The position numbers and the translations under genes were made by a program. Under the pieces are notes generated by a model. The model saw only the letters and a list, made by a program, of their open reading frames with translations, had not been told where the DNA came from and made no database searches. From a virus: a stretch of 64,000 bases of DNA. The stretch is taken from IMG/VR virus record IMGVR_UViG_3300022074_000029, positions 1 through 64,000 of that record. One strand, written 5' to 3'. Shown one piece after another: positions 1 through 11,732 of the stretch. Numbering within the stretch: position 1 is the stretch's first letter; every line of letters starts with the position of its first letter.

Positions 1-33
1 TCTCTACACTTGAATGAACTATACAAGATGTGA
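1..33 (+). CDS. 3' end of an upstream gene (partial)
   Basis: Frame 1 is open from the window edge and stops with TGA at 31-33, giving a ten-residue C-terminus ending ELYKM. The other two forward frames stop by position 17. The stop codon lies inside the left arm of a palindromic promoter element, as happens at several other gene ends in this region. Too little is visible to name the gene. Confidence 0.35.
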   Translation, partial: SLHLNELYKM

Positions 34-87
34 CAGTTTAGAAACTGGTTGAGTGGTATTGCACACTCAACCTTTTTGATGTACAAT
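29..87 (+). promoter_or_regulatory. Palindrome-type promoter, copy 1
   Basis: The left arm TGTGACAGT is at 29-37, followed by a 6-nt centre and a right arm that matches only in its first four bases (ACTG). A -10-like TACAAT lies at 82-87, exactly 29 nt after the 24-bp element. The gap holds a terminator-like hairpin. It would drive the endonuclease-like, membrane and methyltransferase genes. Confidence 0.6.
47..77 (+). terminator. Rho-independent terminator in the promoter gap
   Basis: A 9-bp perfect stem (GGTTGAGTG at 47-55 with CACTCAACC at 64-72) is followed directly by five T. It would end transcription of the upstream gene and sits between the palindrome and the -10 box of the next promoter. 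Confidence 0.6.
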
Positions 88-96
88 AATATTATT

Positions 97-678
97 ATGA
101 AATTAAAACCAATGGTAATCACAAATGATATTCAAGATGTTGCAGAAGCACTAAAGCAGCAACTACCATCTATTTGTGATGAGTGGAATACTGTATCACT
201 TCCATTAATGGAGACACTATACAGGAAGAGTTTCAAGAAAATATTTGAGAACAGACAGACACAGGAAAAGACCAAAGCAATATCCCCTATCATCGATGAG
301 ATCATTGCAGAGAAGATACAAGAGAAAGTTTCTAACTTCACTATTACAGAAGGGAAGGGATTTGATTATACTCTCAATGATACAGAGATAGAGTGGAAGA
401 ATAGTCTATCTAATTCTGACTCATGGACTGGTAACGGTTACAGAAAAACTAACTGGCATGTCTTATGTAAGTTTATCCCTAATGAAGATGGAGTTATTGA
501 GAGTTATTTCGCTTGCATTATTCCATATGATGTGATAAAGTCTAATTGGAGTGAAACTGGTAACAGTAATTTCAGTTCACTAAAGTTGTTGAAGGATGAT
601 AACTTTAACATAATCAAAGTTGCAGGTACTTTAACATCTGCTAAAAAATATCTAAAACCTCAATTCGTCACAGTATGA
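97..678 (+). CDS. PD-(D/E)XK restriction-endonuclease-like protein
   Basis: Predicted 193-residue DNA endonuclease. I see a PD-(D/E)XK-like core: D90 and D95, then E99-W100-K101 in the segment DTEIEWKNSL, followed about nine residues later by W-T-G-N-G-Y and a W-H-V-L strand. This order (acidic residue, E-x-K, then a WxGNxY-type turn) is common in type II restriction enzymes. The ATG at 97 is chosen because it follows the promoter leader; the frame is open to a TTG at 49 inside the terminator stem. Its stop overlaps the next gene as ATGA, and a methyltransferase lies one gene downstream, which fits a restriction-modification operon. It could instead be a phage nuclease with another role. The family assignment rests on the motif only. 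Confidence 0.55.
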   Translation: MKLKPMVITNDIQDVAEALKQQLPSICDEWNTVSLPLMETLYRKSFKKIFENRQTQEKTKAISPIIDEIIAEKIQEKVSNFTITEGKGFDYTLNDTEIEWKNSLSNSDSWTGNGYRKTNWHVLCKFIPNEDGVIESYFACIIPYDVIKSNWSETGNSNFSSLKLLKDDNFNIIKVAGTLTSAKKYLKPQFVTV

Positions 679-962
679 TTCCCCTATTATTCACAGCAGC
701 AGGTTTCCTAAACCTAATGTTTTATGTTTTTGCTATTGGATTTGTTATCTCTTTGATACTAGAACAGATTCTTAAGGTCAGACCCTTGTCTGCATTTGCA
801 GAGGTGAATGAGAGGAATAATTTTATAGTCCAGACTAATAGAAAATATTGTTGGAGACAAGCATGGATTACTAATCTTTTTTGGTTCTTATGTAATGTAG
901 GATTATTTGTTATCTCAAGAAATATGGCATCACCAACAGATACATTCTGGAATGGACTATGA
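675..962 (+). CDS. Small membrane protein within the methyltransferase operon
   Basis: 95 residues, not recognised. Two hydrophobic segments are visible: residues about 3-30 (LLFTAAGFLNLMFYVFAIGF onward) and about 66-83 (ITNLFWFLCNVGLFVI), with a basic loop between them, so it is probably an inner-membrane protein. It starts within the stop of the endonuclease-like gene (ATGA) and its own stop overlaps the methyltransferase start (ATGA), so translation of the three genes is probably coupled. A holin-like or exclusion role is possible, but nothing in the sequence shows it. Confidence 0.7.
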   Translation: MIPLLFTAAGFLNLMFYVFAIGFVISLILEQILKVRPLSAFAEVNERNNFIVQTNRKYCWRQAWITNLFWFLCNVGLFVISRNMASPTDTFWNGL

Positions 963-1747
963 TACTATTACAGGATTGTATTGAAGGGATGAAGGAACTT
1001 GAAGAGGGTTCTATTGATGCTATTGTGACATCCCCACCATATAACCTTAATATTAAATATGGTAAATATGCTGACAATAAACCTAAACAGGATTATCTTG
1101 ATTGGATACGATTAGTATTCAAAGAAGGTAAACGCATATTAAAAGATGACGGACATCTATTTGTTAACATGGGATATTCAAATATTGACCCCTATGTTGG
1201 CATGGAAGTTGCAATGACATTAAGATACGATTGGGTATTACAAAATAATATTAATTGGGTTAAGTCTATTCATGTCAATGATAAGACAAGTGGACATTTT
1301 AAACCAATTAATAGTAAGAGATTCTTATGTCCTACATGGGAGAACTTATTTCATTTTACTAAAGATGGTAATGTTAATGTTGACAGATTATCAGTTGGTG
1401 TGAAGTATGAGTACTATGAAGCAAACATAAGAGGAAACAATACAAAGGAGAATAAACCTAATCTAAGAGATAAAGGTAACGCATGGTTTATACCATACGA
1501 AACTATTAACAGCAAAGAACTCAAAGGAAAACATCCTGCTATATTTCCAGTTAAATTAGTTGAAGATTGTTTAAAACTAACTGGTATTCAAGGTGGAACA
1601 GTAGTTGACCCATTCATGGGAACTGGAAGCACAGCAGTAGCAGCAAAGCAATTAAGGTGGAGATCAATCGGATGGGATATTGATGAAGACTATGTAAAGT
1701 TTGCTAACAATAGAGTTAACGTAGGATTGACACCATTGCTAAGTTGA
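959..1747 (+). CDS. Beta-class DNA methyltransferase (N4-cytosine or N6-adenine)
   Basis: 262 residues. Motif IV TSPPYNL is at residues 24-30, ahead of the S-adenosylmethionine motif I (DPFMGTGST, about 217-225). This order defines the beta class. TSPPY is most frequent in N4-cytosine enzymes but also occurs in N6-adenine enzymes, so the modified base is not settled. It probably protects phage DNA from the endonuclease-like product two genes upstream, to which it is linked by ATGA overlaps. It could instead be an orphan enzyme that blocks host restriction. Its last codons contain a consensus sigma70 promoter for the next gene. Confidence 0.88.
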   Translation: MILLQDCIEGMKELEEGSIDAIVTSPPYNLNIKYGKYADNKPKQDYLDWIRLVFKEGKRILKDDGHLFVNMGYSNIDPYVGMEVAMTLRYDWVLQNNINWVKSIHVNDKTSGHFKPINSKRFLCPTWENLFHFTKDGNVNVDRLSVGVKYEYYEANIRGNNTKENKPNLRDKGNAWFIPYETINSKELKGKHPAIFPVKLVEDCLKLTGIQGGTVVDPFMGTGSTAVAAKQLRWRSIGWDIDEDYVKFANNRVNVGLTPLLS

Positions 1748-1755
1748 TATATAAT
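1727..1755 (+). promoter_or_regulatory. Consensus sigma70 promoter
   Basis: TTGACA at 1727-1732 and TATAAT at 1750-1755 are both perfect and are separated by exactly 17 nt. It lies in the 3' end of the methyltransferase gene and points at the 376-residue gene. It lacks the upstream palindrome seen at the other early promoters, so it should work with unmodified host polymerase. Confidence 0.75.
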
Positions 1756-1820
1756 AACGTGAATGGACGACATACCTGTTGTTTACATTTCACATTTACC
1801 TACTATTATAGAGGATTAAA

Positions 1821-2951
1821 ATGAAGGAACTTAAAGTTGGCGAGTGGTATCGCCTGCCAATTAATATTGGAGATTGCTCTAGTGTTGAATTGGATGAGAT
1901 TGAAATAGGTCTCATTACAAGAGCAGCATTTTTAGAGTTACCACAATGGATTACACAAAGGAGTGTAACCAACAGAATTAAAAAGAAAGGTGTATTAGAT
2001 CACCTAGCAAAACTATTTCCTACTCATTTCATAGTTGCACTAGCAGAACTGACAGAGAGTGACGTATGGGAAGATGGAAGAGAGTTTGAATCTGGTCAAG
2101 AGTGGACAATAGATGCTAACTCAAGAGGACATATCTGGAGAAATGGTATGTCAGATGCAGTACCAGATAATGTGCTTGCTATCAAATACAAAGGTAAGTC
2201 TTTACTTGATATCAGGAGCATATACTGGGCATTTGATAACCCAACAGCAGCAGAAGTAGCAGCAGAAGTTGTTACTGGTGTGTTGAGATCTCTTAATGCT
2301 ACCTTATACACTAAGAAGTTTCAAAGTGGTCAGTTCGTAACAGCATTATCATACACTTGTATGTTTGATAATAAAACTGTTTACGGAGACAGAGGACTAT
2401 GGACAGACAGCGATAGTGATGAAGTTACTAATAGTGAATACAAGAGGAGGATGACTTCGCTTGCAGTTCAACAGTATCTACCAACTATACAGGCAGTTGA
2501 TGAACTGTTAAATACACATGGTATTTCTAAGGACTTCGATCAGACATTTATTACATCATTATTCTTATTCCACTTAAAGATGGGAACATTTGATAAGAAT
2601 GTAATTGAAGTCATAAGACTACTAGCAGAGACAGAGTTGGATGCAGACGGAGAGAAAGTTGGCATTGCTACCACTAAAACAGGAGCATTACAACCTCAAG
2701 GATGGATTAAACGAGAGAATGACAGAGGATACGACAAGGTAAGTGACATCAAAATTCCTGACAGAGGAAAAATTGATGGATACTATCAAGGAGTTCCATT
2801 CTTCTGTTATTGGTTATACATTGCATCTGATAATGGGACTGAAAAGAAACAGAAATCAGGTCCAAAACAAGGGTACCGCAAGTGGTTTGACGATACTTTC
2901 ATGAATCGAACCAACATGCGTGTCCTACTGGAGGAACAACTAACTAAGTAA
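1821..2951 (+). CDS. ParB/DGNTR-like phage protein of unknown function
   Basis: 376 residues. The N-terminal third has the layout of ParB-like or DGQHR-type proteins: an R-rich helix (QRSVTNRIKKK), a P-T-H-F-I-V-A-L-A strand, then IDANSRGHIW at about residues 98-107, which resembles the IDGNTR motif of that group. The rest is unrecognised. Related phage proteins often lie near nucleic-acid genes; here it sits between a methyltransferase and a helicase. A DNA-binding or nucleotide-dependent role is an inference. An AT-rich leader of about 60 nt from the consensus promoter precedes the start, with TAGAGGA just upstream as a ribosome-binding site. Confidence 0.6.
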   Translation: MKELKVGEWYRLPINIGDCSSVELDEIEIGLITRAAFLELPQWITQRSVTNRIKKKGVLDHLAKLFPTHFIVALAELTESDVWEDGREFESGQEWTIDANSRGHIWRNGMSDAVPDNVLAIKYKGKSLLDIRSIYWAFDNPTAAEVAAEVVTGVLRSLNATLYTKKFQSGQFVTALSYTCMFDNKTVYGDRGLWTDSDSDEVTNSEYKRRMTSLAVQQYLPTIQAVDELLNTHGISKDFDQTFITSLFLFHLKMGTFDKNVIEVIRLLAETELDADGEKVGIATTKTGALQPQGWIKRENDRGYDKVSDIKIPDRGKIDGYYQGVPFFCYWLYIASDNGTEKKQKSGPKQGYRKWFDDTFMNRTNMRVLLEEQLTK

Positions 2952-2957
2952 CTTACT

Positions 2958-3152
2958 ATGAAACGTGAAATCAAACTTCTAAAGAAATGTATAAAGAAAG
3001 GGGAGCAAACCCCTTTCCTATACAATGAAGAAGAGACTTTGAGACTCAAGAACAAACTCAAACAGTTGCAAGAATGGTGGGATAGTGCTAGAGTTGCACA
3101 GAACAACGGATTTGGACAATACATAGACCAACCGACAGACCAGTCTGAATAG
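2958..3152 (+). CDS. Small charged protein
   Basis: 64 residues, not recognised. It is rich in Lys and Glu and strongly helical in its first 45 residues (basic start KREIKLLKKCIKK, then EEETLRLKNKLKQLQEW), with a polar tail. It starts 6 nt after the 376-residue gene and ends just before a strong terminator, so the two form one operon. Confidence 0.65.
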   Translation: MKREIKLLKKCIKKGEQTPFLYNEEETLRLKNKLKQLQEWWDSARVAQNNGFGQYIDQPTDQSE

Positions 3153-3193
3153 TGTCACAACCCCTTGCATAAGGGGTTTTTTTATTGTATAAT
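3136..3193 (+). promoter_or_regulatory. Palindrome-type promoter, copy 2
   Basis: The right arm AGTGTCACA is at 3151-3159; the left arm is weak, keeping only CCAGT. TATAAT is at 3188-3193, 28 nt downstream. The gap is filled by a terminator hairpin. It would drive the helicase and second methyltransferase. Confidence 0.55.
3159..3183 (+). terminator. Strong rho-independent terminator
   Basis: Stem AACCCCTT (3159-3166) with AAGGGGTT (3171-3178), loop GCAT, then a run of T to 3183. It ends the 376/64-residue operon and lies between the palindrome and the -10 box of the helicase promoter. Confidence 0.9.
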
Positions 3194-3211
3194 GAATGTA
3201 TTGACAAAGTT

Positions 3212-4441
3212 ATGATGATTCAATTGAGACCACATCAAGAAAAATGTTTCGATGCTATGCAGAGAAATAATGTAGGTCAAGTCATCGTACCTACTGGTGG
3301 TGGTAAGACATACATCATGATTGAAGATGCTATAAATCAGTTCAAAAGTCCAGTTGCAAAAACTATTGTAGTTGTTGCACCTCGTATCTTACTTGCTAAT
3401 CAGTTATGTGCAGAGTTTACAGAGTTTATAACTGATGCTGATATTGCTCACGTTCATAGTGGAGAGACACATTATTTCTCTACAACTAAAACAAAGAGAC
3501 TAGAGAACTGGTATCATAATAGCACAAAGAATATTATTATCTTTACTACATACCATTCACTTCACAAGATAACTGAATCACTTGATATTGAGATTGATAC
3601 TATCTATTATGATGAAGCACACAATGGAACACAAAAGAACTTCTTTCGAGCAGTAAAAACTATTACCGCAGATCGTAAATTCTACTTCACAGCAACCCCT
3701 AAGATCAGTAAAAGTGGTGCGGAGAATGGTATGGATAACAGTAAAGTATGGGGTCATGTAATTGCTAATGTTCATGCCAAAACCCTTATCAATACTGGTG
3801 CTATCGTGCCACCTAAGGTAGTTCCGTTTAAAACAAATAGAAAGCGGAATAAAGAAAATGCTCACGATGTGGATGCGGACAATCTTAAGGACATGATTGA
3901 GAGTCTTGATAGTGGTAACCATAAGATACTTGTATCAGCACCTAGTAGTAAAATACTTGGCAAGATGTTAGGACAGACCCCTATTCTTGACTATTTCAAG
4001 AGCAATGGTTATCAGGTTATGCACATTACATCTAAATTTGGTGCAGTTATCAATGGTAAGAAAGTAGGAAGAGAAAAGTTTTTTGATATCCTTACTAAGT
4101 GGGGTGGAGAGAATGACAAGAAATTTGTTATATTCCACTATTCTATTCTTAGTGAAGGTATCAATGTTAATGGTCTCACTCATACTATCTTATTGAGAAA
4201 CCTACCTATCATCGAAATGGCACAAACTATTGGTAGGGTCATCAGAGTCCATAAAGATGATCGCAAGGCGGTTGCAGAGGGTCTCATCCCCTCAGGAGCG
4301 TTCCATTTATACAAGAAGGCATTTGGACAAGTGACAATGCCGATCGGGTATCGTATGGGAGACGTTACAAAGATGAGACTTGAGCAAGTTGTAAACAGTA
4401 TCTTTATTGAAGGAGTACCACCCCTCGCTTATTGCATCTAA
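3212..4441 (+). CDS. SF2 DNA/RNA helicase (DEAH-box)
   Basis: 409 residues from ATG at 3212 (3215 is also possible). An ATP-driven helicase or translocase of superfamily 2. Visible motifs: RPHQ at the N-terminus, Walker A PTGGGKT (about 27-33), DEAH (134-137), FTATP motif III (about 159) and motif VI QTIGRVIR (about 338-345). The frame is open upstream to a TTG at 3185, but that start would lie in the terminator and -10 region. Its stop overlaps the start of methyltransferase 2, so the two are probably co-translated. It resembles type III or type I restriction-type helicases and also UvsW-like phage helicases; its neighbourhood does not decide between recombination or repair and a role with the modification genes. 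Confidence 0.88.
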   Translation: MMIQLRPHQEKCFDAMQRNNVGQVIVPTGGGKTYIMIEDAINQFKSPVAKTIVVVAPRILLANQLCAEFTEFITDADIAHVHSGETHYFSTTKTKRLENWYHNSTKNIIIFTTYHSLHKITESLDIEIDTIYYDEAHNGTQKNFFRAVKTITADRKFYFTATPKISKSGAENGMDNSKVWGHVIANVHAKTLINTGAIVPPKVVPFKTNRKRNKENAHDVDADNLKDMIESLDSGNHKILVSAPSSKILGKMLGQTPILDYFKSNGYQVMHITSKFGAVINGKKVGREKFFDILTKWGGENDKKFVIFHYSILSEGINVNGLTHTILLRNLPIIEMAQTIGRVIRVHKDDRKAVAEGLIPSGAFHLYKKAFGQVTMPIGYRMGDVTKMRLEQVVNSIFIEGVPPLAYCI

Positions 4442-5361
4442 TGAAAGACACAATTTTATATGGAGATTGTAGAGATACAATCCCAACAATAACAGAACCA
4501 GTTCAAATGTGTGTTACATCACCACCTTATTATGGTCTTAGAGACTATGGTGGAGAAGACAAACAGATTGGACAAGAAGGAAGTCCAGAGGAGTTTATCG
4601 ACCAACTGGTAGAGGTATTCAAAAAGGTTAGGAATGTTCTAACTGATGATGGAACTCTATGGGTTAACATGGGAGACACATACTATAACTATAGGAGTGA
4701 TGGGAACTATCCTAAACAAACAGTAAGTAAAACTAATCAAGACCTACCTAGTTTCTCACCTGCTAGAGGAAACAAACTAAAAGGACTAAAGAGTAAGGAT
4801 TTAATTGGCATCCCTTGGATGTTGGCATTCGCACTAAGGAAGGATGGATGGTATCTTAGACAAGATATCATTTGGCATAAACCTAATCCAATGCCAGAGT
4901 CAGTTAAGGATAGATGCACTAAATCTCATGAATATATTTTCTTACTGAGCAAGAGTAAGAACTATTACTACGATAATGAAGCAATCAAAGAACCTGCAAA
5001 AGACTGGGGAACTAGAGACCGCACAAATGGCAAGTATCATAATAAAGGAACTGGTTTACAACCTCATAGCGGATTGAGTAAGAGTTATCCTACAAAGAAT
5101 AAGAGATCAGTATGGACAGTAACGAGCAAACCATATAAGGAAGCACATTTTGCTACCTATCCACCCGACTTGATTGAACCTTGCATCAAAGCAGGTAGTA
5201 AGAAGGGTGATATAATCCTAGACCCATTCATGGGTAGTGGAACAACAGCAATGGTATCTAAGCAATTAGATAGGCACTTTATAGGATGTGAGTTACATGA
5301 CTCATATAAAACTCTTATAAATGGAAGACTACCAAACACAGCATTGAGTGACCTCTTCTAA
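4441..5361 (+). CDS. Second beta-class DNA methyltransferase
   Basis: 306 residues from the ATG that overlaps the helicase stop (TAATG). Motif IV TSPPYYGLRDYG starts at residue 26, and motif I DPFMGSGTT is near residue 261, again the beta order. The SPPYYGLRDYG form is common among phage and bacterial enzymes annotated as N4-cytosine or N6-adenine methyltransferases. It is not a duplicate of the first enzyme: apart from the motifs the sequences differ, so they probably recognise different sites. A longer form from TTG at 4432 is possible but lacks support. Confidence 0.88.
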   Translation: MKDTILYGDCRDTIPTITEPVQMCVTSPPYYGLRDYGGEDKQIGQEGSPEEFIDQLVEVFKKVRNVLTDDGTLWVNMGDTYYNYRSDGNYPKQTVSKTNQDLPSFSPARGNKLKGLKSKDLIGIPWMLAFALRKDGWYLRQDIIWHKPNPMPESVKDRCTKSHEYIFLLSKSKNYYYDNEAIKEPAKDWGTRDRTNGKYHNKGTGLQPHSGLSKSYPTKNKRSVWTVTSKPYKEAHFATYPPDLIEPCIKAGSKKGDIILDPFMGSGTTAMVSKQLDRHFIGCELHDSYKTLINGRLPNTALSDLF

Positions 5362-5421
5362 TGTGCCACTTCAGGTACTGTCACACATATGGTTGCATAT
5401 GACTAGCATATGCCTTATATT
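5362..5421 (+). promoter_or_regulatory. Palindrome-type promoter, copy 3
   Basis: Left arm TGTGCCACT (5362-5370), 6-nt centre, right arm ACTGTCACA (5377-5385). TATATT is at 5416-5421, 30 nt downstream. The gap contains CATATG, GTTG, CATATG, a small self-complementary hairpin. Unlike the other copies, no start codon follows directly; a long structured leader begins instead. Confidence 0.65.
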
Positions 5422-5427
5422 AAGAAT

Positions 5428-5633
5428 GTCGAAACAAACCAACGTAAAACTTTCAAGGTTGCGTTCAGTCGCATTTAAATCGAACTTAAGTAGTTGAGTT
5501 TTGTTTCGACCCATCCAAACACAGGGCAAAGATCTATGGTTGTTTCAATTCAGTTGAGAAATTACGTCTTTTAAGTCCCACCATAGAGGTCATCTAGTCA
5601 AACCTAACATTGCGTTGGAGCATCTAGTTTAAC
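5428..5633 (+). ncRNA. Candidate structured leader or small RNA
   Basis: It begins about where transcription from the palindrome-type promoter should start. The first 11 nt (5428-5438, GTCGAAACAAA) are perfectly complementary to 5500-5510, enclosing about 60 nt that include a TGCG/CGCA hairpin. A second pairing joins 5533-5540 (TCTATGGT) to 5580-5587 (ACCATAGA). Segment 5583-5592 is also perfectly complementary to 5641-5650, within the first codons of the next gene, so the two pairings compete. CATCTAGT and a TRACATTG motif each recur with a 30-nt period (5591/5621 and 5605/5635). No ORF of useful length is evident here. It may be a regulatory leader of the next gene or an independent RNA. 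Confidence 0.45.
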
Positions 5634-5906
5634 ATGACATTGACCTCTATACCCCTATTCAAATTATTTTCAAAGGTCATGGAAGACACACTCGATCTAA
5701 ATTTTGAGAGACAAACATCAATCGATAACATGATTGATTCACTCTATGAAGCAATGACTAACAATGGACTGAAGGGAAACATCCCCGAAGCAGCAGCATG
5801 TTACGAGGAGTGGGTAGTAGATGGAGTTGACCCTCAAGAAGTTGATAAGTATGAATTCACATTCTTAAACAACATGACCCTACCTACATTCGAGAAGGAC
5901 TTTTAA
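5634..5906 (+). CDS. Small protein downstream of the structured leader
   Basis: 90 residues, not recognised. The mature-looking part is acidic and helical (EDTLDLNFERQ onward) and ends in a short Phe-rich tail. The start is uncertain: ATG at 5634 lies inside the candidate switch region, while ATG at 5679 would give a 75-residue protein beginning MEDTLDLNFE. Its stop touches the next start. Confidence 0.6.
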   Translation: MTLTSIPLFKLFSKVMEDTLDLNFERQTSIDNMIDSLYEAMTNNGLKGNIPEAAACYEEWVVDGVDPQEVDKYEFTFLNNMTLPTFEKDF

Positions 5907-6086
5907 ATGAAAAACTTTTCATCAATTTACTATCCTGATCTCGACCCCTACGAGCAGCAGTATAATGACATTTGGTTTATGCAAATGTTATCACGTTTAA
6001 CACTTGACGGTATTTTGTTTATACCTGATCTTAACAAATCATTTAATAAAAAAGGAGAAGAGATTAATGACAACCGCAGCACCTAA
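5907..6086 (+). CDS. Small hypothetical protein
   Basis: 59 residues beginning MKNFSSIYYPDLDPYEQQYN, immediately after the preceding stop. The Tyr/Asp-rich first half resembles the small acidic proteins around it. The last 20 nt overlap the next gene in another frame, which supplies that gene's ribosome-binding site (GGAG at about 6055). No function can be given. Confidence 0.55.
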   Translation: MKNFSSIYYPDLDPYEQQYNDIWFMQMLSRLTLDGILFIPDLNKSFNKKGEEINDNRST

Positions 6087-6204
6087 GTTACGGTATCCAA
6101 AATATAAACTTAAAAGATTCTCTCATAAAAAGTGGGGAGCAGATAAAGTTTATAGAAATGTATACTACTTACAGTTTTTTGTAAACAGTACGTGTGACAG
6201 TTAA
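6067..6204 (+). CDS. Small basic protein
   Basis: 45 residues from ATG at 6067, preceded by AAAAAAGGAGAAGAG, one of the few clear Shine-Dalgarno sequences in this region. It is Lys/Arg/Tyr-rich (KLRYPKYKLKRFSHKKW), in contrast to its acidic neighbours, so nucleic-acid binding is conceivable. Its final codons form the left arm of the next palindrome. Confidence 0.6.
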   Translation: MTTAAPKLRYPKYKLKRFSHKKWGADKVYRNVYYLQFFVNSTCDS

Positions 6205-6251
6205 TTATGTGTCACACACTACCACGCATAGGGTATAAACTACCCTATAAT
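6193..6251 (+). promoter_or_regulatory. Palindrome-type promoter, copy 4
   Basis: Left arm TGTGACAGT (6193-6201), right arm TGTGTCACA (6208-6216), TATAAT at 6246-6251, gap 29 nt. A 7-bp hairpin (TAGGGTA 6229-6235 with TACCCTA 6241-6247) overlaps the first bases of the -10 box. Confidence 0.75.
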
Positions 6252-6273
6252 AAGAATAACGAAACAAAGGAAC

Positions 6274-6531
6274 ATGACTATCCCAACTCAAAACCTTTAC
6301 GAACAAATGTTCATGAAACAAGAAGAACCAATTGACTTTCTAGTCACTATCTACGAGGACTATCTAAGCAAGCATAATCTACCAGAATATGATGCAAGCG
6401 ATATGCTTCATGCTCATCATATTGGAGAGATCGAACTACATGATGGTCAAATCGGTTGGTTCAACAACTTTATTCGCTTATGGGATTTTGTAAGCGAAGC
6501 AGAATATCAAAACTTTTCATCAGGAGTTTAA
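6274..6531 (+). CDS. Small acidic protein
   Basis: 85 residues. A helical, acidic protein with D-M-L-H-A-H-H followed by G-E-I-E-L-H-D-G-Q-I-G-W, a layout I recall from small proteins of T4-like cyanophages without known function. First gene of a four-gene operon under palindrome promoter copy 4. The leader ends AAACAAAGGAAC before the ATG. Confidence 0.7.
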   Translation: MTIPTQNLYEQMFMKQEEPIDFLVTIYEDYLSKHNLPEYDASDMLHAHHIGEIELHDGQIGWFNNFIRLWDFVSEAEYQNFSSGV

Positions 6532-6532
6532 A

Positions 6533-6790
6533 ATGGACAAAGCACTAATCAATGAACTAAAATCATTTTTAGTTGAGAGATATGTAGATAACATGTCAAC
6601 AAAAGATCTAGTTCAATATGTCATGGATGATCTTGATGACCTATACAAAAACATGCCAGATGAAGAGTTTATTGATGAAGCAAAAAACTACTGGGATGAC
6701 GGTTTTGGCGAAGTAATTGATGAGATTCAAGATTATATGAAAACACCTTTTAAACAACCATTAAGAGAATCATTCGAGGAGACTAACTAA
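6533..6790 (+). CDS. Small acidic protein
   Basis: 85 residues, 1 nt after the preceding stop. Very acidic (repeated DD, DLDDLYKNMPDEEF) and predicted to be all helical. Not recognised. Its stop overlaps the next start (TAATG), which indicates coupled translation. Confidence 0.7.
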   Translation: MDKALINELKSFLVERYVDNMSTKDLVQYVMDDLDDLYKNMPDEEFIDEAKNYWDDGFGEVIDEIQDYMKTPFKQPLRESFEETN

Positions 6791-6966
6791 TGAACTACAA
6801 ACAACAAATTGAACTTGATGGTTACATCAATATCTGGGAAGTAATACCAGAGGATGAACATTCACATATTTCTAACAAGATATGGGAAGCACTTGATAGA
6901 GCAGGAATTGAGTTATCTCAAGATGCAGAGTTATCAGTTAGAGTCTATGATGAGAGGGTAGATTAA
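6790..6966 (+). CDS. Small hypothetical protein
   Basis: 58 residues beginning MNYKQQIELDGYINIWEVIP. The start overlaps the previous stop and the stop overlaps the next start, both as TAATG. Not recognised; acidic, probably one beta hairpin followed by a helix. Confidence 0.65.
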   Translation: MNYKQQIELDGYINIWEVIPEDEHSHISNKIWEALDRAGIELSQDAELSVRVYDERVD

Positions 6967-7133
6967 TGAAAATCAAAGACGTGACCAACTCACAAAAAGA
7001 CTGGGATGACTTTTGGTATCATTCTACAGATAAGATAAGTGTTTCAGAGTATCAAAAGAAAGCATACGATGAAACTACATCCATATCTGAATTAGAGAGT
7101 CTAGCAGATGACCCTATGGGAATTGGCAAGTAG
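6966..7133 (+). CDS. Small hypothetical protein
   Basis: 55 residues beginning MKIKDVTNSQKDWDDFWYHS. Last gene of the operon that starts at 6274; its stop TAG is directly followed by palindrome copy 5. Trp/Asp-rich N-terminus, no recognised domain. Confidence 0.65.
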   Translation: MKIKDVTNSQKDWDDFWYHSTDKISVSEYQKKAYDETTSISELESLADDPMGIGK

Positions 7134-7192
7134 TGTGACAGTTTAGGTACTGTCACATAGTTCCCCTATTCCTATTTCATTCCCTTTATAAT
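7134..7192 (+). promoter_or_regulatory. Palindrome-type promoter, copy 5 (perfect arms)
   Basis: TGTGACAGT (7134-7142), TTAGGT, ACTGTCACA (7149-7157): the two 9-nt arms are exactly complementary. TATAAT is at 7187-7192, gap 29 nt. No -35 hexamer is visible (the position holds a C-rich stretch). Confidence 0.85.
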
Positions 7193-7214
7193 AAGAATAA
7201 CAAACGAGGAAACT

Positions 7215-7490
7215 ATGCAATTCAAATCTCAAAACGAAGAAACAGTAATTGACTATTACGAGGTTCATAACGTTAACAGAGAGATAGTTAAAAATGCTAG
7301 ATTGAGAGTCATTACATTCTTAGGTAAGACAGTTGCAAATGCACCTATCAACGTTTTTGACATGGCAGAAGAGATTGATGTTCTACTAGAAAAGAACTAT
7401 GCAGTTACTTGTAACACAAAAAGACCATCACAGTATATGCTTAATGTGACAGCACAGAAAGTGGCACAATCACGCACATCTTTCTACTAA
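7215..7490 (+). CDS. Small hypothetical protein
   Basis: 91 residues, a single-gene unit between two palindrome promoters. Mixed alpha/beta look, with a central R-L-R-V-I-T-F-L-G-K strand. Its last 50 nt contain palindrome copy 6, so coding and control sequence overlap. Not recognised. Confidence 0.7.
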   Translation: MQFKSQNEETVIDYYEVHNVNREIVKNARLRVITFLGKTVANAPINVFDMAEEIDVLLEKNYAVTCNTKRPSQYMLNVTAQKVAQSRTSFY

Positions 7491-7503
7491 TCCCCATTAT
7501 AAT
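7445..7503 (+). promoter_or_regulatory. Palindrome-type promoter, copy 6 (inside a coding end)
   Basis: TGTGACAGC (7445-7453), 6 nt, AGTGGCACA (7460-7468), TATAAT at 7498-7503, gap 29 nt. The palindrome lies wholly within the 3' coding region of the 91-residue gene. Confidence 0.7.
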
Positions 7504-7526
7504 AATAGTATAAACAAACAAACATC

Positions 7527-7979
7527 ATGACCGAAACACTTACATTAAAAGAGAGAGTTGAAGATTGGACAGCAGAGCATTGTTTAGCACTTGAGCAGAA
7601 TTATCTTGATTATCATAGGAGAATGATAACAAATAACTTTGAGAGATACTCAGGAGTTAGATCAGATTTATCTGACTATGCAAAAGAGCAACTTGATGCT
7701 ATGGACAATGGAACTTTCAGAGGTAAGAAATTCACATTCAGCGAAGGTAAGAAGTACCTAAAAGTTGTTATGAATGACTATAACAACTTAACTGGAAAGT
7801 ATGACGGAAGAGGAGTCCATTGCTTTATCGATAAGAATACTGGCGAAGTGTATAAAGCAGCATCTTGGAAAGCACCAGCGAAGGGAGTTCGCTTTGATAT
7901 GAGAATTATTAGAGAAAGGGAACTAATGCATAATTCTAACTTCTGCGGATGGTCAGGAGGGTATCTATATGCCAGATAA
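7527..7979 (+). CDS. Conserved marine T4-like phage protein
   Basis: 150 residues. The C-terminal half carries G-R-G-V-H-C-F-I-D-K-N-T-G-E-V-Y-K-A-A-S-W, then K-A-P-A-K-G-V-R and a final G-G-Y-L-Y-A-R. I recognise this block (VHxFVDKxTGxVYKxASWKxPAKxVR) from small proteins found repeatedly in T4-like cyanophages; no function is known to me. The N-terminus is helical. Single gene under palindrome copy 6, with an A-rich leader (AAACAAACAAACATC) and no Shine-Dalgarno sequence. Confidence 0.75.
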   Translation: MTETLTLKERVEDWTAEHCLALEQNYLDYHRRMITNNFERYSGVRSDLSDYAKEQLDAMDNGTFRGKKFTFSEGKKYLKVVMNDYNNLTGKYDGRGVHCFIDKNTGEVYKAASWKAPAKGVRFDMRIIRERELMHNSNFCGWSGGYLYAR

Positions 7980-8030
7980 TAAACTGTCACATGGGAGGTT
8001 GCAATTCCTCTCATTATTTCCTATTATAAT
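7968..8030 (+). promoter_or_regulatory. Palindrome-type promoter, copy 7 (degenerate)
   Basis: Right arm ACTGTCACA (7983-7991) is intact; the left arm TATGCCAGA keeps 6 of 9 consensus bases. TATAAT is at 8025-8030 (gap 33), or TATTAT at 8022-8027 (gap 30). GGAGG and CCTC in the gap can pair. Confidence 0.6.
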
Positions 8031-8054
8031 AATAACGATACATACATCACTATT

Positions 8055-8288
8055 ATGAGATCACCTAAAGGTTGGAACATCGAACTCAGCACAACACAAT
8101 TCGATTATCTTTGTAACGTATTAATGGAAGCAAATGATGACGCTAAAATTGTAGGAAAAGGTTGGGACATTCAAACATTTGATAATCTAGTTGATAATGT
8201 TTGCAATGCTAAAGAAACATACTTATCCCTAGACTGTAAAGGTGTTAGGAGTATAGTAGAAGGTAAAATTCAATTGGAGAGAAACTAA
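8055..8288 (+). CDS. Small hypothetical protein
   Basis: 77 residues, first of three overlapping genes. Contains two Trp (KGWNIEL, KGWDIQT) and several helices; not recognised. Stop and next start overlap as TAATG. Confidence 0.65.
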   Translation: MRSPKGWNIELSTTQFDYLCNVLMEANDDAKIVGKGWDIQTFDNLVDNVCNAKETYLSLDCKGVRSIVEGKIQLERN

Positions 8289-8419
8289 TGAACACATTTG
8301 AAATTACATTTGATGAGCAATATCAACTCATTAAATTATATGATCTCTTGAGAGATAACGGTATGATTGATGATCTACCTAAAGAGATAGAAACCTTTTT
8401 TGATAAACTAACCTACTAA
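8288..8419 (+). CDS. Very small acidic protein
   Basis: 43 residues (MNTFEITFDEQYQLIKLYDL at the start), short but supported by TAATG overlaps at both ends and by the amphipathic helix it encodes. Not recognised. Confidence 0.55.
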   Translation: MNTFEITFDEQYQLIKLYDLLRDNGMIDDLPKEIETFFDKLTY

Positions 8420-8595
8420 TGGAAGATTTAACAGAAAAGCAAAAGTTGCTTATTCACTTGAATGAATCTAAGAAGATTCTTGAAAAATGCACCTCACTTG
8501 ATGATGAGAATGTAGGCATCTTCCAGGAATTCAATCGTATCATATACGAAGAGATTTTGAAACCTATGGTGGACAGTAATAAGACTGGCACATAG
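8419..8595 (+). CDS. Small helical protein
   Basis: 58 residues, starting in the previous stop. Helical, with a possible coiled coil at residues 5-25 (EKQKLLIHLNESKKILEK). Its last codons form palindrome copy 8. Not recognised. Confidence 0.6.
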   Translation: MEDLTEKQKLLIHLNESKKILEKCTSLDDENVGIFQEFNRIIYEEILKPMVDSNKTGT

Positions 8596-8627
8596 TACTC
8601 CCATTTTTATTTTATTTCCTTTATAAT
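8569..8627 (+). promoter_or_regulatory. Palindrome-type promoter, copy 8
   Basis: Left arm GTGGACAGT (8569-8577; last six bases match), right arm ACTGGCACA (8584-8592), TATAAT at 8622-8627, gap 29 nt. The palindrome overlaps the end of the 58-residue gene. Confidence 0.65.
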
Positions 8628-8648
8628 AAGAGTAATTAAACAAACAGC

Positions 8649-8942
8649 ATGACTTCACTTCAAATCGTAAACGCTCACAGACAGATCTCAGATTTCGTAG
8701 ATTATGTAGATCTATTCTATGGCACTTCAGATGGTGACGAAACACTTTATCCCCTATATCTAAAAGGTCAGAGATTGACTAAAGAAGATATTCGTCACGC
8801 TACTATCGTATATTTGGATAGATGTAATAATGATGATTTTCAAAATTGCACATGGGGTGACGGAGATTCATTAGACAGAGAAAGAGTAAGAGACATTCTA
8901 ACAGAGAAATTTGGATATGATTACGACAGTGTGACAGTTTAA
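8649..8942 (+). CDS. Small acidic protein
   Basis: 97 residues, single-gene unit. Acidic, with D-F-V-D-Y-V-D-L-F-Y and a C-N-N-D-D-F-Q-N-C segment. It ends S-V-T-V because its last codons are the left arm of perfect palindrome copy 9. Not recognised. Confidence 0.7.
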   Translation: MTSLQIVNAHRQISDFVDYVDLFYGTSDGDETLYPLYLKGQRLTKEDIRHATIVYLDRCNNDDFQNCTWGDGDSLDRERVRDILTEKFGYDYDSVTV

Positions 8943-8988
8943 TTACTGTCACATATAAACCCCATTCTACGGAGTGGGGTCTTATAAT
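8930..8988 (+). promoter_or_regulatory. Palindrome-type promoter, copy 9 (perfect arms)
   Basis: TGTGACAGT (8930-8938), TTAATT, ACTGTCACA (8945-8953), TATAAT at 8983-8988, gap 29 nt. The gap contains an ACCCCA...TGGGGT hairpin (8959-8980) without a T run. Confidence 0.85.
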
Positions 8989-9010
8989 ATTAATATACAA
9001 ACAAAGAAAC

Positions 9011-9253
9011 ATGAATTCAACAGCAACTTACATCGAACCAGTTAATCGAATCAAACAGCGTATTTTGTTTGATGATAACCTCGATAACCTTACATGCTTA
9101 TGTGCTAACTGGGAAGAGTATGTTATTGAGATCTCAGAGTGGGGCATTTACAAGTTAGGAGGAGTTGATTTTGATACTCTTACTAAGCAAGATATTGCTA
9201 AACTAGATCAGTTCATGGTCTCACAAAATGGTTATGAAAAGGAGGAAGTTTAA
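9011..9253 (+). CDS. Small acidic protein
   Basis: 80 residues, first of a two-gene operon. Helical and acidic, with C-L-C-A-N-W in the middle. Its final codons (AAAAGGAGGAAG) provide a strong Shine-Dalgarno sequence for the next gene. Not recognised. Confidence 0.7.
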   Translation: MNSTATYIEPVNRIKQRILFDDNLDNLTCLCANWEEYVIEISEWGIYKLGGVDFDTLTKQDIAKLDQFMVSQNGYEKEEV

Positions 9254-9547
9254 ATGAGAACATTTGATTTTAAAAAGTCTCAAGAGATTAGTCACTCTAA
9301 TTTCTTACCAGTTCAGACTATTGTAAGCGAAGAATTTGGTAGGCACTTCTTTATTGATATTGCATTTGAGTTCATATCAGCAGCATCCTTAAAAGATGGT
9401 GGATATGATAAAAACACTCTCGGATATGTTTCAGAGTGGGATGACTGGGAAGGGGTCAACAAAACTGAACTATTTGAAATATATCGAAAGTTAGTCGCAG
9501 ATGAGTATCATGAAGAGACTACCAGAATTTTAGAAAGATTTCAATAG
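9254..9547 (+). CDS. Small acidic protein
   Basis: 97 residues, starting directly after the preceding stop and preceded by GGAGG. Contains a W-D-D-W-E-G motif and a helical, Glu-rich C-terminus. Not recognised. Confidence 0.7.
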   Translation: MRTFDFKKSQEISHSNFLPVQTIVSEEFGRHFFIDIAFEFISAASLKDGGYDKNTLGYVSEWDDWEGVNKTELFEIYRKLVADEYHEETTRILERFQ

Positions 9548-9551
9548 TATA

Positions 9552-9610
9552 TGTGACACTTTAAATAGTGGCACACGTACGCCCCATATGTGGATCGGGG
9601 CGACTATAAT
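9552..9610 (+). promoter_or_regulatory. Palindrome-type promoter, copy 10
   Basis: TGTGACACT (9552-9560), TTAAAT, AGTGGCACA (9567-9575), TATAAT at 9605-9610, gap 29 nt. A CGCCCC...GGGGCG hairpin fills the gap (about 9580-9602) and has no T run. Confidence 0.8.
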
Positions 9611-9635
9611 TAGAGTATACAAACAAAGAAACATC

Positions 9636-9926
9636 ATGAATTTATTTGACGCAGTTCCATTTTTCGTAGATCAAGAGTTAGGTTACGAAGTGGACGAAGA
9701 GAACATCAGTTCATACGATGTTCAAAGGGTATTTAAAATTGTTGTTGATAATTGCGATAACTTCTCACTAGGCACTTTGACACCTAAAAATCACATGATG
9801 ATTAAAAGAATGGTAAGGAATGCAATTTCTCTCATGGTATCCGATGATAGTGAAGAGAGAGATCAATTCAATCAAATGGTAAGAGAAGTTAAGCAAGATT
9901 TATCAAAGAAAGTGGCACTAGCATAA
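9636..9926 (+). CDS. Small acidic protein
   Basis: 96 residues from ATG at 9636, which follows the conserved leader AAACAAAGAAACATC. An upstream in-frame ATG at 9588 would lie before the -10 box and cannot be used from this promoter. Helical; not recognised. Its last codons contribute to palindrome copy 11. Confidence 0.7.
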   Translation: MNLFDAVPFFVDQELGYEVDEENISSYDVQRVFKIVVDNCDNFSLGTLTPKNHMMIKRMVRNAISLMVSDDSEERDQFNQMVREVKQDLSKKVALA

Positions 9927-9970
9927 GTGTCACAAAGGGGTTGCCAAAAACCCCATTTATCCCTTATAAT
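9911..9970 (+). promoter_or_regulatory. Palindrome-type promoter, copy 11
   Basis: Left arm AGTGGCACT (9911-9919, 7 of 9 complementary), right arm AGTGTCACA (9926-9934), TATAAT at 9965-9970, gap 30 nt. The gap holds a GGGGTT...AACCCC hairpin (9937-9954). Confidence 0.7.
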
Positions 9971-9986
9971 AAGAGTAACAAACACA

Positions 9987-10184
9987 ATGAGACCGAGAAT
10001 TATGTCACATGCAGTAAACGATTCAATCCTAGAAAATCTTTATGATGAAGTATGGGAGGATTACAGAAAGTCAAACAATCTAACACTAGATCAAATGTAT
10101 CACTTAGAGCAAGATGAAAATTCTGGTATTATGTCAATGCTAGGAGATCAAGCAATGAGAGCATTTGAAGCGAGGTGCATTTAA
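9987..10184 (+). CDS. Small acidic protein
   Basis: 65 residues from ATG at 9987 after the leader AGTAACAAACACA. A longer frame begins at 9927, upstream of the -10 box, so the shorter form is chosen. Helical, Glu/Asp-rich; not recognised. First gene of a five-gene run to 10974. Confidence 0.65.
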   Translation: MRPRIMSHAVNDSILENLYDEVWEDYRKSNNLTLDQMYHLEQDENSGIMSMLGDQAMRAFEARCI

Positions 10185-10387
10185 TGGAACTAACACCTAA
10201 ACAACTTGAATATCTACTCACATGCCTAGATTTTCATTATACAGAGTATGAAGGTTCTAAGGATGACATAATCGAAATTAATGCTAGTATAGGCAGATTG
10301 ATTAATCATGAATTAGAGCAATTTAAGAAAGTTCAAAAGAAGATAGATAAGAAGAGAGAATTGCTACCTAAACCAGAATGGGGTTAA
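10184..10387 (+). CDS. Small helical protein
   Basis: 67 residues, starting in the preceding stop (TAATG). Begins MELTPKQLEYLLTCLDFHY; the second half is a probable coiled coil (HELEQFKKVQKKIDKKREL). Not recognised. Confidence 0.65.
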   Translation: MELTPKQLEYLLTCLDFHYTEYEGSKDDIIEINASIGRLINHELEQFKKVQKKIDKKRELLPKPEWG

Positions 10388-10390
10388 AAA

Positions 10391-10618
10391 GTGCATCACG
10401 TTTTGTACGAATGGAGCGAACTTGTTGAAATAGATCAACGATTAAAGAGAATAGAGGAAGCAATCCAACTTACGAAGGATTTAAACACTATTCTCTATAA
10501 TAGCGATAATAAAGACCTATTGCAACATAGTCACATTATACAAAAGGAATTAGAACAGCAATTCCAGGAGATTCAATCTATTTTCGAGAATAGACTTAAA
10601 AAAACTAACTTATCCTAG
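10391..10618 (+). CDS. Small coiled-coil protein
   Basis: 75 residues from a GTG start (AAAAAGTGCATC). Heptad-like spacing through most of the length (EIDQRLKRIEEAIQLTKDL onward). The start is uncertain because no ATG is available near the beginning. The next gene follows with no gap. Confidence 0.6.
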   Translation: MHHVLYEWSELVEIDQRLKRIEEAIQLTKDLNTILYNSDNKDLLQHSHIIQKELEQQFQEIQSIFENRLKKTNLS

Positions 10619-10852
10619 ATGAATTTTAAACTCTTTGACTTATACCGTATAGGGAACGATATAGGTTATATCTCTTTTATTTCTAAGGCACATTATATAA
10701 CCTTAGTTGTAAGAGAATGGGAGGATAAAGAGACTATGAACGGAAAAAGACAAGTTAAAATTCTTGTATTTCCTCATGAGTATGAATCAATGGAATTACT
10801 AGATCGTGATACATATGCGGAACAGTTCCCGCACACATTTGTAAAGGGATGA
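10619..10852 (+). CDS. Small hypothetical protein
   Basis: 77 residues, directly abutting the previous stop. Unlike its neighbours it looks beta-rich (GYISFISKAHYITLVVREW, RQVKILVFPHEY). Not recognised. Confidence 0.65.
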   Translation: MNFKLFDLYRIGNDIGYISFISKAHYITLVVREWEDKETMNGKRQVKILVFPHEYESMELLDRDTYAEQFPHTFVKG

Positions 10853-10974
10853 GAGACGAAGAGAAAATAACTAAACCTAAGCAGTTGCAATATATTTGGA
10901 CGATTCTTAAGGAGTTGGTAGTTTTGCAATGGATGGAAGTAAGAAAGCATAAAAGATGGAATAAAGGGGAATAA
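10849..10974 (+). CDS. Very small basic protein
   Basis: 41 residues whose ATG overlaps the preceding stop (ATGA). Basic and Trp-containing (QYIWTILKELVVLQWMEVRK). Support is the overlap and the preceding GGGATG context only. Not recognised. Confidence 0.45.
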   Translation: MRDEEKITKPKQLQYIWTILKELVVLQWMEVRKHKRWNKGE

Positions 10975-11060
10975 CTGAAAACCTTTTAAATATGTAAATA
11001 AATCTAGTTTAGTGTTCAATCTGTTACACTCTTAGCACGTTTTTTATCGACTGTCAAGGG

Positions 11061-11366
11061 TTGCGAGTATACCGACACATTTCTCAGAAGGGGTTGACTT
11101 TAATATATAAAGATGATACAATAACACTGCAAGGGTTCAGAAAAAGATCTATGGTTTATTCACTCTATGATGATAAGCATAAATTGATAGGACAGTTTAA
11201 AAGCATCTATGAGTTACAGACATTTATTCATGACTTCAGAGTGAACAGAGAAGAGTGGAGGATAAGAAAGAACCAGGATATTAGCACTTTCGATTATATC
11301 AAATCTATTGGATATTTTTGGGATTGTGTGCCAGTACAACAAGTGTCACAAGAGGACTTCTCATAG
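11061..11366 (+). CDS. Small protein with uncertain start
   Basis: 101 residues if TTG at 11061 is used; alternatives are TTG at 11094 or ATG at 11151 (71 residues). The beta-hairpin-like pattern L-T-L-I-Y-K-D-D-T-I-T-L-Q-G-F continuing into V-Y-S-L-Y-D-D-K-H-K-L-I-G-Q-F suggests the coding sequence extends upstream of the ATG. AAGGGG or AAGGG stands just before either TTG. No palindrome promoter precedes it. Its last codons carry palindrome copy 12. Not recognised. Confidence 0.55.
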   Translation: MRVYRHISQKGLTLIYKDDTITLQGFRKRSMVYSLYDDKHKLIGQFKSIYELQTFIHDFRVNREEWRIRKNQDISTFDYIKSIGYFWDCVPVQQVSQEDFS

Positions 11367-11385
11367 GGTCATGGGTTGCTATAAT
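11327..11385 (+). promoter_or_regulatory. Palindrome-type promoter, copy 12
   Basis: TGTGCCAGT (11327-11335), 6 nt, AGTGTCACA (11342-11350), TATAAT at 11380-11385, gap 29 nt. The left arm is inside the preceding coding sequence. Confidence 0.75.
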
Positions 11386-11411: not shown

Positions 11412-11732
11412 ATGAGAAAGATTGAAAGACAAATGAATCAAGCAATCAGAACAGGCAATAACTTCTCATCATCTAATACAATGGTTAGGCACGGTTGGGA
11501 GAATGAAGCGGATGTTTATCTACATGGCAATCATATAGCAACAGTTAAGAACAATTCAATCATCATCAAAGATGGCGGTTGGCAATCCAATACAACCAAA
11601 TCACGCTTAAATGCTCTACTTGATGAGTTTTCATATGGCATGAGAGTATTTCAAAAGAATTACGAGTGGTTCGTATCTTATAAGAATGTCAAGCAAGATT
11701 TTATAAGCGGTATGGAGTTAGCAATCGACTAA
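11412..11732 (+). CDS. Conserved small protein of T4-like cyanophages
   Basis: 106 residues. The start MRKIERQMNQAIRTGNNF and the block G-G-W-Q-S-N-T-T-K-S-R-L-N-A-L match my memory of a short protein common to T4-like cyanophages, always of unknown function. Predicted beta strands (VYLHGNHIATVKNNSIIIKD) between helices. Single gene under palindrome copy 12, ended by a strong terminator. Confidence 0.75.
   Translation: MRKIERQMNQAIRTGNNFSSSNTMVRHGWENEADVYLHGNHIATVKNNSIIIKDGGWQSNTTKSRLNALLDEFSYGMRVFQKNYEWFVSYKNVKQDFISGMELAID

What the first reader, a model, noticed from the sequence alone, without database searches (positions are those of the whole stretch)
29..11385. A repeated 24-bp palindrome at fixed distance from TATAAT: an early regulon with its own promoter type
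Twelve copies of an imperfect palindrome (arms TGTGACAGT / ACTGTCACA, 6-nt centre) precede the early transcription units: 29-52, 3136-3159, 5362-5385, 6193-6216, 7134-7157, 7445-7468, 7968-7991, 8569-8592, 8930-8953, 9552-9575, 9911-9934, 11327-11350. In eight copies exactly 29 nt separate the element from a TATAAT-type box; the others have 28-33. No -35 hexamer is present. This fixed geometry argues for a dimeric activator, or a modified polymerase, binding about 54 nt before the start site. T4-like cyanophages are reported to lack the T4 MotA/AsiA system, so another control of such genes would be welcome. The endonuclease-methyltransferase and helicase-methyltransferase operons are members.
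Basis: seen in the sequence. Interest (0 to 1): 0.88.

Follow-up and report, generated by a model that had tools for sequence, protein, structure and literature searches.

The report
Conserved palindromic promoter element of cyanophages
T4-like viruses of ocean and freshwater cyanobacteria carry the same 24-letter palindrome at a fixed distance upstream of many non-structural genes, which looks like the docking site of a still unidentified activator protein and fills a gap in what is known about how these abundant viruses switch on their genes.

Summary
The window is a 68-kb fragment of a T4-like cyanophage (Kyanoviridae). Eleven of the twelve palindromes are the top-scoring positions of the fragment in leave-one-out scans. 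The copy at 3136 is only a half-site, but its orthologue in P-RSM4 sits at the same place. Eight copies lie exactly 29 nt before a -10 box, the rest 28-33. All twelve lie in the non-structural 11.4 kb; the structural part has none and carries T4-late boxes instead. A matrix trained on the window alone found 87 elements in seven cyanophage genomes, marine and freshwater; 76 have TAnnnT at 28-30 nt. IMG/VR gives the same sharp peak. The element also keeps its place before orthologous genes (peptidase, cobS, phrog_481). It is absent from close relatives that infect SAR11 or OM43, from T4, and from P-SSP7; S-TIM5 has at most one weak copy. Best reading: the binding site of a dimeric, position-dependent activator at about -53.5 that substitutes for a -35 box. 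NtcA, CRP, MotA, PhoB and gp55 signatures were tested and not met. The binder is unknown: no phage DNA-binding protein tracks the element, and no cyanobacterial genome carries the same geometry. Early timing is inferred. I could not read the Syn9 transcript-start study (Doron 2016), so prior description is not excluded.

The parts
29..52 (+). element 1 (downstream arm degenerate); -10 TACAAT at 82-87
   Evidence: top LOO score; spacing 29
97..3152 (+). transcription unit 1: unknown (97-678), unknown (675-962), N6/N4 DNA methylase (959-1747), phrog_2615 (1821-2951), phrog_711 (2958-3152)
3136..3159 (+). element 2 (one good half-site); terminator-like hairpin in the spacer; -10 TATAAT 3188-3193
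   Evidence: orthologous site in P-RSM4
3212..5361 (+). transcription unit 2: DEAD/ResIII helicase (3212-4441) and N6/N4 DNA methylase (4441-5361)
5362..5385 (+). element 3; -10 TATATT 5416-5421; drives a stretch without ORF at 5415-5633 (candidate ncRNA)
6193..6216 (+). element 4; -10 TATAAT 6246-6251
6274..7133 (+). transcription unit 4: four small ORFs of unknown function
7134..7157 (+). element 5 (perfect arms); -10 TATAAT 7187-7192
7445..7468 (+). element 6; -10 TATAAT 7498-7503; drives phrog_818/DUF7717 gene (7527-7979)
7968..7991 (+). element 7; -10 TATTAT 8022-8027 (30 nt) or TATAAT 8025-8030 (33 nt)
8569..8592 (+). element 8; -10 TATAAT 8622-8627
8930..8953 (+). element 9 (perfect arms); hairpin in the spacer; -10 TATAAT 8983-8988
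9552..9575 (+). element 10; hairpin in the spacer; -10 TATAAT 9605-9610
9911..9934 (+). element 11; hairpin in the spacer; -10 TATAAT 9965-9970
11327..11350 (+). element 12; -10 TATAAT 11380-11385
11412..11732 (+). Kyano_Gp96 (PF23790) gene, first gene of the last element-driven unit
12168..12335 (+). phrog_661, AbrB/MazE-like 55-aa protein: the only DNA-binding-like phage protein seen near the regulon; tested as binder and missing from three strong element carriers

Best explanation
The 24-bp palindrome (consensus TGTG[A/C]CA[G/C]T-N6-A[G/C]TG[G/T]CACA) is the DNA site of a dimeric transcription activator that switches on the non-structural genes of T4-like cyanophages. Bound at -65 to -42 (centre about -53.5), the dimer would sit just upstream of the -35 region on one face of the helix and recruit the host sigma-70 RNA polymerase by touching sigma or the alpha C-terminal domains. 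The promoter can then work with a good -10 (TATAAT; TAnnnT in divergent phages) and almost no -35. Shown here: the element, the fixed geometry, the purine 7 nt after the -10, conservation across genera and at orthologous genes, restriction to non-structural genes, and absence from close relatives in non-cyanobacterial hosts. Inferred: activation, dimer binding and early timing. Who binds is open. I lean slightly to a host protein conserved across cyanobacteria (the cyanobacteria-only GntR regulator PlmA is one untested candidate), because the site hardly changes from marine to freshwater phages while no phage DNA-binding protein is shared by all carriers.
For: Window: 8 copies vs 0.06 expected; 11 of 12 rank first in LOO scans; purine at the predicted start in 12/12. 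A matrix trained only on the window gives 87 elements (score >=17) in seven other cyanophages; 76 have TAnnnT at 28-30 nt, and offset 29 is hit 65 times against about 5 at typical offsets (site lists). IMG/VR, non-redundant: of 162 element-to-TATAAT pairs 15-50 nt apart, 75% are at 28-30 nt, and 93% of those have a purine 7 nt after the -10. 29-nt-geometry scan: counts of 1 to 12 in carriers against 0-2 for the reversed pattern; 0 in T4, pf16, HTVC008M, P-SSP7, PSS2 and S-TIM5. Orthologous placement: before the peptidase gene T4-GC146 in P-RSM4, P-SSM2, P-HM2 and Syn9; before cobS in P-SSM2 and P-HM2; before the phrog_481 gene in P-HM2, P-TIM40 and S-PM2. Structural half of the contig: no elements, eight NATAAATA late boxes. 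About 40-nt sites, one helical turn further out, more often carry TTGACA + 16-17 bp. Host side: absent from Kyanoviridae relatives in SAR11 and OM43; no phage TF family tracks the element.
Against: No transcript 5' ends, binding or expression data were available. The 40-nt class shrinks to 5-8 independent promoters after removing relatives, and its better -35 is then only p = 0.08. A scan of 84,980 bacterial and archaeal species genomes found no cyanobacterial contig with element + 28-31 nt + TANAAT, so if the binder is a host activator, its own regulon does not use this exact geometry. Some cyanophages have few or degraded copies (P-TIM68, S-RSM4, S-CREM1), so the system is dispensable or drifts. 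PlmA's DNA motif is not given in the papers I could read.
Confidence: 0.72

Rival explanations
1. The activator is encoded by the phage (made first from ordinary promoters, or carried in the virion); the AbrB/MazE-like phrog_661 protein is the best visible candidate. The regulon would then be delayed-early/middle, a functional replacement of MotA.
For: phrog_661 lies in or next to the regulon and is found in 12 of the 16 cyanomyovirus records scanned, and in none of the relatives with non-cyanobacterial hosts. Element geometry is missing from cellular genomes except contigs that look like misbinned cyanophages. The element is phage-lineage-specific: unrelated phages of the same hosts (S-TIM5, P-SSP7, PSS2) have no clear regulon.
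Against: phrog_661 is missing from S-SSM7, S-CRM01 and P-HM2, all rich in elements, and gives a weak match in S-TIM5. No other DNA-binding family is shared by all carriers, although the site is nearly invariant.
Confidence: 0.38
2. The palindrome is an operator: a repressor shuts these genes off later in infection.
For: Palindromes are typical repressor operators; small phage AbrB-like proteins are often repressors (general knowledge).
Against: The site ends at -42, clear of the -35/-10 region, and its distance is locked to about 1 bp over hundreds of promoters; steric repression does not need that. The promoters lack a -35 and would be weak without help.
Confidence: 0.1
3. The repeats are recombination cassettes (PeSL-like promoter + stem-loop units) that let small genes be shuffled by homology; conservation reflects shuffling rather than protein binding.
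For: Repeated units sit between small variable genes; a terminator-like hairpin lies in the spacer in about a third of sites against 11% of shuffles.
Against: Conservation is confined to the palindrome, the -10 and the start site; the spacers between are not alike. Elements also precede single core genes such as the peptidase and cobS. The function is compatible with, and additional to, activation.
Confidence: 0.07
4. Chance, or residual homology between duplicated promoters.
For: Small genes here are paralogue-rich and phages recombine.
Against: 8 vs 0.06 expected; same geometry in freshwater phages with different -10 sequences and no flanking similarity.
Confidence: 0.01

Closest known systems
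NtcA-activated cyanobacterial promoters (palindrome GTA-N8-TAC, 20-24 nt, TAN3T, no -35)
   Same: Palindrome at a fixed distance from a TAnnnT -10 box, replacing the -35 (knowledge of the family; GTAN8TAC consensus as used in PMC3037559).
   Different: Different sequence and length; centre at about -53.5 instead of -41.5; GTAN8TAC in 2 of 193 promoters vs 3 of 193 shuffles, full NtcA promoter in none.
CRP class I / class II promoters
   Different: TGTGA-N6-TCACA absent (0/193); half-site spacing is 8 bp larger; observed centres -53.5 and about -64.5.
T4 middle promoters (MotA/AsiA)
   Same: Phage promoter with TATAAT whose -35 is replaced by an activator box.
   Different: MotA box is a single asymmetric site at about -30; TGCTT in 0 of 12 window promoters; cyanomyoviruses lack motA and asiA (PMC2984593).
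PeSL cassettes of T4-like phages (promoter-early stem-loop; Arbiol 2010, Comeau 2014, cited in PMC4503421)
   Same: Early promoter coupled to a terminator hairpin between small variable genes.
   Different: PeSLs are not described, as far as I could read, as having an upstream 24-bp palindrome at fixed distance; hairpin present in only about a third of sites. Primary papers not held.
Host PhoB driving S-PM2d genes (PMC10976474)
   Same: Cyanophage promoters that use a host transcription factor.
   Different: Direct-repeat Pho boxes at a few P-stress genes; CTTAN7CTTA in none of these promoters.
pMarR of podovirus P-SSP7 (PMC9692554)
   Same: Dimeric regulator used by a cyanophage, contacts RNA polymerase alpha.
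   Different: Acts on a host gene from a site downstream of the start; P-SSP7 has none of these elements.

Membership tests
NtcA regulon | GTA-N8-TAC box 20-24 nt before TAN3T | tested here: not met
   0/193 promoters with the full architecture; box alone at shuffle level
CRP-type sites | TGTGA-N6-TCACA | tested here: not met
   0/193
T4 middle promoter (MotA/AsiA) | MotA box (TGCTT core) about 11-13 nt upstream of -10 | tested here: not met
   0/12 in window, 6/181 in IMG/VR sites
T4 middle promoter (MotA/AsiA) | motA and asiA genes in the phage | not tested
   absence in cyanomyoviruses taken from PMC2984593; no such family among early ORFs searched
T4 late promoter (gp55) | TATAAATA | tested here: not met
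   0 within 60 nt of any window element, 0/181 elsewhere; late boxes on the + strand occur from 16,134 on, behind the start of the structural part
Canonical sigma-70 early promoter | TTGACA -35 with 15-19 bp spacer | tested here: not met
   >=5 of 6 matches in 15 of 121 non-redundant 28-30 nt sites; -10 feature is met
Pho box promoters | CTTAN7CTTA | tested here: not met
   0/193
PeSL cassette | stem-loop terminator directly coupled to an early promoter | tested here: inconclusive
   spacer hairpin (< -6 kcal/mol) in 34% of sites vs 11% of shuffles
Position-dependent activator site | palindrome locked in distance and helical phase to a -10 box | tested here: met
   76/87 elements with TAnnnT at 28-30 nt in seven genomes; weaker second cluster near 40 nt
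Position-dependent activator site | protein binds and raises transcription | not testable with these tools
   needs binding and reporter assays
Regulon of phage AbrB-like phrog_661 | regulator gene present wherever sites are | tested here: not met
   absent from S-SSM7, S-CRM01, P-HM2, which carry many elements
Regulon of host PlmA (GntR) | PlmA binds the site; sites in host PlmA regulon | not testable with these tools
   no cyanobacterial genome could be opened; PlmA is described as universal and exclusive to cyanobacteria (PMC5083789); the ten phages scanned encode no GntR protein

The most novel reading that the evidence does not exclude
Ocean and freshwater T4-like cyanophages have built a family-wide regulon on one conserved transcription factor of the cyanobacterial host (for instance PlmA), reading it through a palindrome at -53.5 in place of a -35 box. 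This would tie phage gene expression to the host's nitrogen/energy/redox signalling and help restrict the system to cyanobacterial hosts.
Probability: 0.25. Interest if true: 0.88.

Novelty: new variant of a known kind. Interest (0 to 1): 0.74.

Why it matters
Reviews state that the control of early and middle transcription in T4-like cyanophages, which lack MotA, AsiA and the Alt/Mod enzymes, is unclear (PMC2984593). A family-wide cis-element with fixed geometry makes it testable: it predicts the regulon and its start sites in sequenced and uncultured phages, gives a 24-bp bait for finding the regulator, and lets existing infection transcriptomes be re-read. Kyanoviridae are abundant marine viruses, so a host- or phage-encoded switch for their takeover genes is of general interest.

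Tried and rejected
Host NtcA, CRP, PhoB, MotA and gp55 signals: tested, not met. phrog_661 (AbrB/MazE-like) as the universal binder: rejected because three strong carriers lack it. The FmdB-like 'transcriptional regulator' phrog_385: rejected, also present in HTVC008M, which has no elements. GntR proteins encoded by the phages: none in ten records. DUF1825, DUF3110, Sm-like and DUF6561 core proteins: no DNA-binding signature. Multi-hit 'bacterial' contigs (Nonlabens, TMED113): look like misbinned cyanophage contigs; the Nonlabens piece encodes close relatives of window early proteins. A helical-turn second class at 40 nt: real in raw counts, weak after removing relatives. Searching cyanobacterial genomes by name or as relatives: not possible. 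Literature searches found no description of the motif in the open library.
Full report
What the window is. The window is part of G000, a 68,168-bp IMG/VR virus record. Its first 12.6 kb hold about 30 small ORFs, two N6/N4 DNA methylases and a helicase. From 12,608 on it encodes baseplate wedge and other virion proteins. The nearest named phages are P-RSM4 and S-TIM4 (Kyanoviridae, Thaumasvirus).

Observation. Eight copies are within 3 mismatches of TGTGACAGTN6ACTGTCACA against 0.06 expected in shuffles. In leave-one-out scoring 11 of 12 outrank every other position of the contig; 3136 is a half-site. Eight copies have exactly 29 nt to the -10 hexamer; the others have 28, 30, 30 and 30/33. The base 7 nt downstream of the -10 is a purine in all 12, usually followed 10-21 nt later by an ATG. 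No element occurs in the structural part; late-type NATAAATA boxes occur there instead, eight on the + strand.

Generality. I trained a symmetric matrix on the 12 window copies only and applied it to other genomes. P-RSM4, P-SSM4, P-SSM2, P-HM2, P-TIM40, S-PM2, Syn9 and freshwater S-CRM01 carry 6 to 25 elements each. Pooled over seven complete genomes, 76 of 87 elements have TAnnnT at 28-30 nt; offset 29 is hit 65 times, typical offsets about 5. In divergent phages the -10 changes (TATTCT in Syn9, TATGCT/TAGAAT in S-CRM01) while the distance stays. An IMG/VR pattern scan with a 15-45 nt gap gave a sharp peak at 29, with 30 and 28 next. After removing relatives, 75% of 162 pairs are at 28-30 nt and 93% have a purine at the predicted start. 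A fixed-geometry scan of 23 records finds the element in most cyanomyoviruses, including freshwater S-SRM01 and S-CRM01. There are none in T4, pf16, SAR11 phage HTVC008M, P-SSP7, PSS2 and S-TIM5, and only one or two chance-like matches in OM43 phage Melnitz. P-TIM68, S-RSM4 and S-CREM1 have few or degraded copies.

Conservation at genes. The element precedes the same genes in different genera with unlike flanks: the peptidase gene (T4-GC146) in P-RSM4, P-SSM2, P-HM2 and Syn9; cobS in P-SSM2 and P-HM2; the phrog_481 gene in P-HM2, P-TIM40 and S-PM2; and the helicase in P-RSM4 and the window. This is phylogenetic footprinting in favour of function.

Mechanism. The element spans about -65 to -42 relative to the predicted start. 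Locked distance, a palindrome with two information-rich arms, a strong -10 and a -35 barely above shuffle level are the anatomy of an activator-dependent sigma-70 promoter. A smaller set of sites has the -10 at about 40 nt, one helical turn further, and more often a consensus TTGACA with 16-17 bp spacing. That is what helical phasing predicts, but it reduces to 5-8 independent promoters (p = 0.08 for the -35 difference), so I treat it as a lead. About a third of the spacers hold a terminator-like hairpin (34% vs 11% of shuffles), so the unit often also ends the upstream transcript, as in PeSL cassettes.

Who binds. Of the protein families shared by P-RSM4 and the element carriers and absent from HTVC008M, Melnitz and T4, none is a recognised DNA-binding regulator. 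The AbrB/MazE-like phrog_661 protein (window 12168-12335) is the best phage candidate; it is found in 12 of the 16 cyanomyovirus records but missing from S-SSM7, S-CRM01 and P-HM2. A scan of 84,980 cellular genomes found no cyanobacterial contig with the geometry; the multi-hit contigs look like misbinned cyanophages. I therefore lean only slightly to a host factor conserved in cyanobacteria. That would explain the invariant site from marine to freshwater phages, the lack of a shared phage regulator, and the absence from SAR11 and OM43 phages. PlmA is a named candidate because it is reported as universal and exclusive to cyanobacteria and abundant (PMC5083789), and its YtrA-like relatives bind long palindromes with GT/AC far from the centre (PMC4494728). 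This is a hypothesis, not a result.

Comparison with the known. NtcA-type promoters are the closest design (palindrome + fixed gap + TAN3T), but the NtcA box is absent. CRP, MotA, PhoB and gp55 signatures are also absent. Published accounts say cyanomyovirus early/middle control is unresolved (PMC2984593) and describe sigma-70-like early promoters in S-PM2 and Syn9. The Syn9 transcript-start study was not available, so a prior description of this motif there cannot be excluded.

Limits. Early timing, activation, start sites and binding are inferred. The IMG/VR statistics required exact arms and TATAAT, so only spacing, spacer, start-site and -35 features there are independent of selection; the seven-genome test is free of that bias.

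Noticed in passing
window 5415-5633: No ORF of 50 aa or more on the + strand behind element 3. The first 103 nt (5415-5517) are 100% identical to metaG-MbCM1 and about 83% to P-RSM4/S-TIM4; a second block (5525-5578) recurs in P-SSM2, P-SSM5 and single-cell marine viruses. The first block folds into a long stem, overall z = -1.3; no Rfam match. Candidate ncRNA(s) driven by this promoter type.
   Followed up: partly
window 12168-12335: 55-aa AbrB/MazE-like protein (phrog_661, PF04014 E = 1e-4), common in the same gene region of cyanomyoviruses and absent from relatives in SAR11/OM43 hosts and from T4.
   Followed up: partly
window 7527-7979, 11412-11732: DUF7717 and Kyano_Gp96 genes directly behind elements 6 and 12; unknown function, recurrent in cyanomyoviruses.
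   Followed up: no
L245, L260 (NZ_RMVE01000006.1), L246, L253, L259 (NHFO01000061/63): Contigs filed under Nonlabens xiamenensis and a TMED113 MAG that carry several elements and look like cyanophage DNA: probable contamination or misbinning.
   Followed up: partly
window 3160-3190, 8954-8982, 9576-9604, 9935-9964: GC-rich hairpins in the 28-30 nt spacer between palindrome and -10, i.e. terminator-like structures exactly over the -35 region.
   Followed up: partly
S-PM2 20116, 20397, 20654 (L154): Three strong palindromes within 560 nt that lack a TATAAT box at 29 nt; two have other candidate -10 boxes.
   Followed up: no
window 18324-38132: Single ORF of 6602 aa in the structural region, with an equivalent in P-RSM4.
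   Followed up: no
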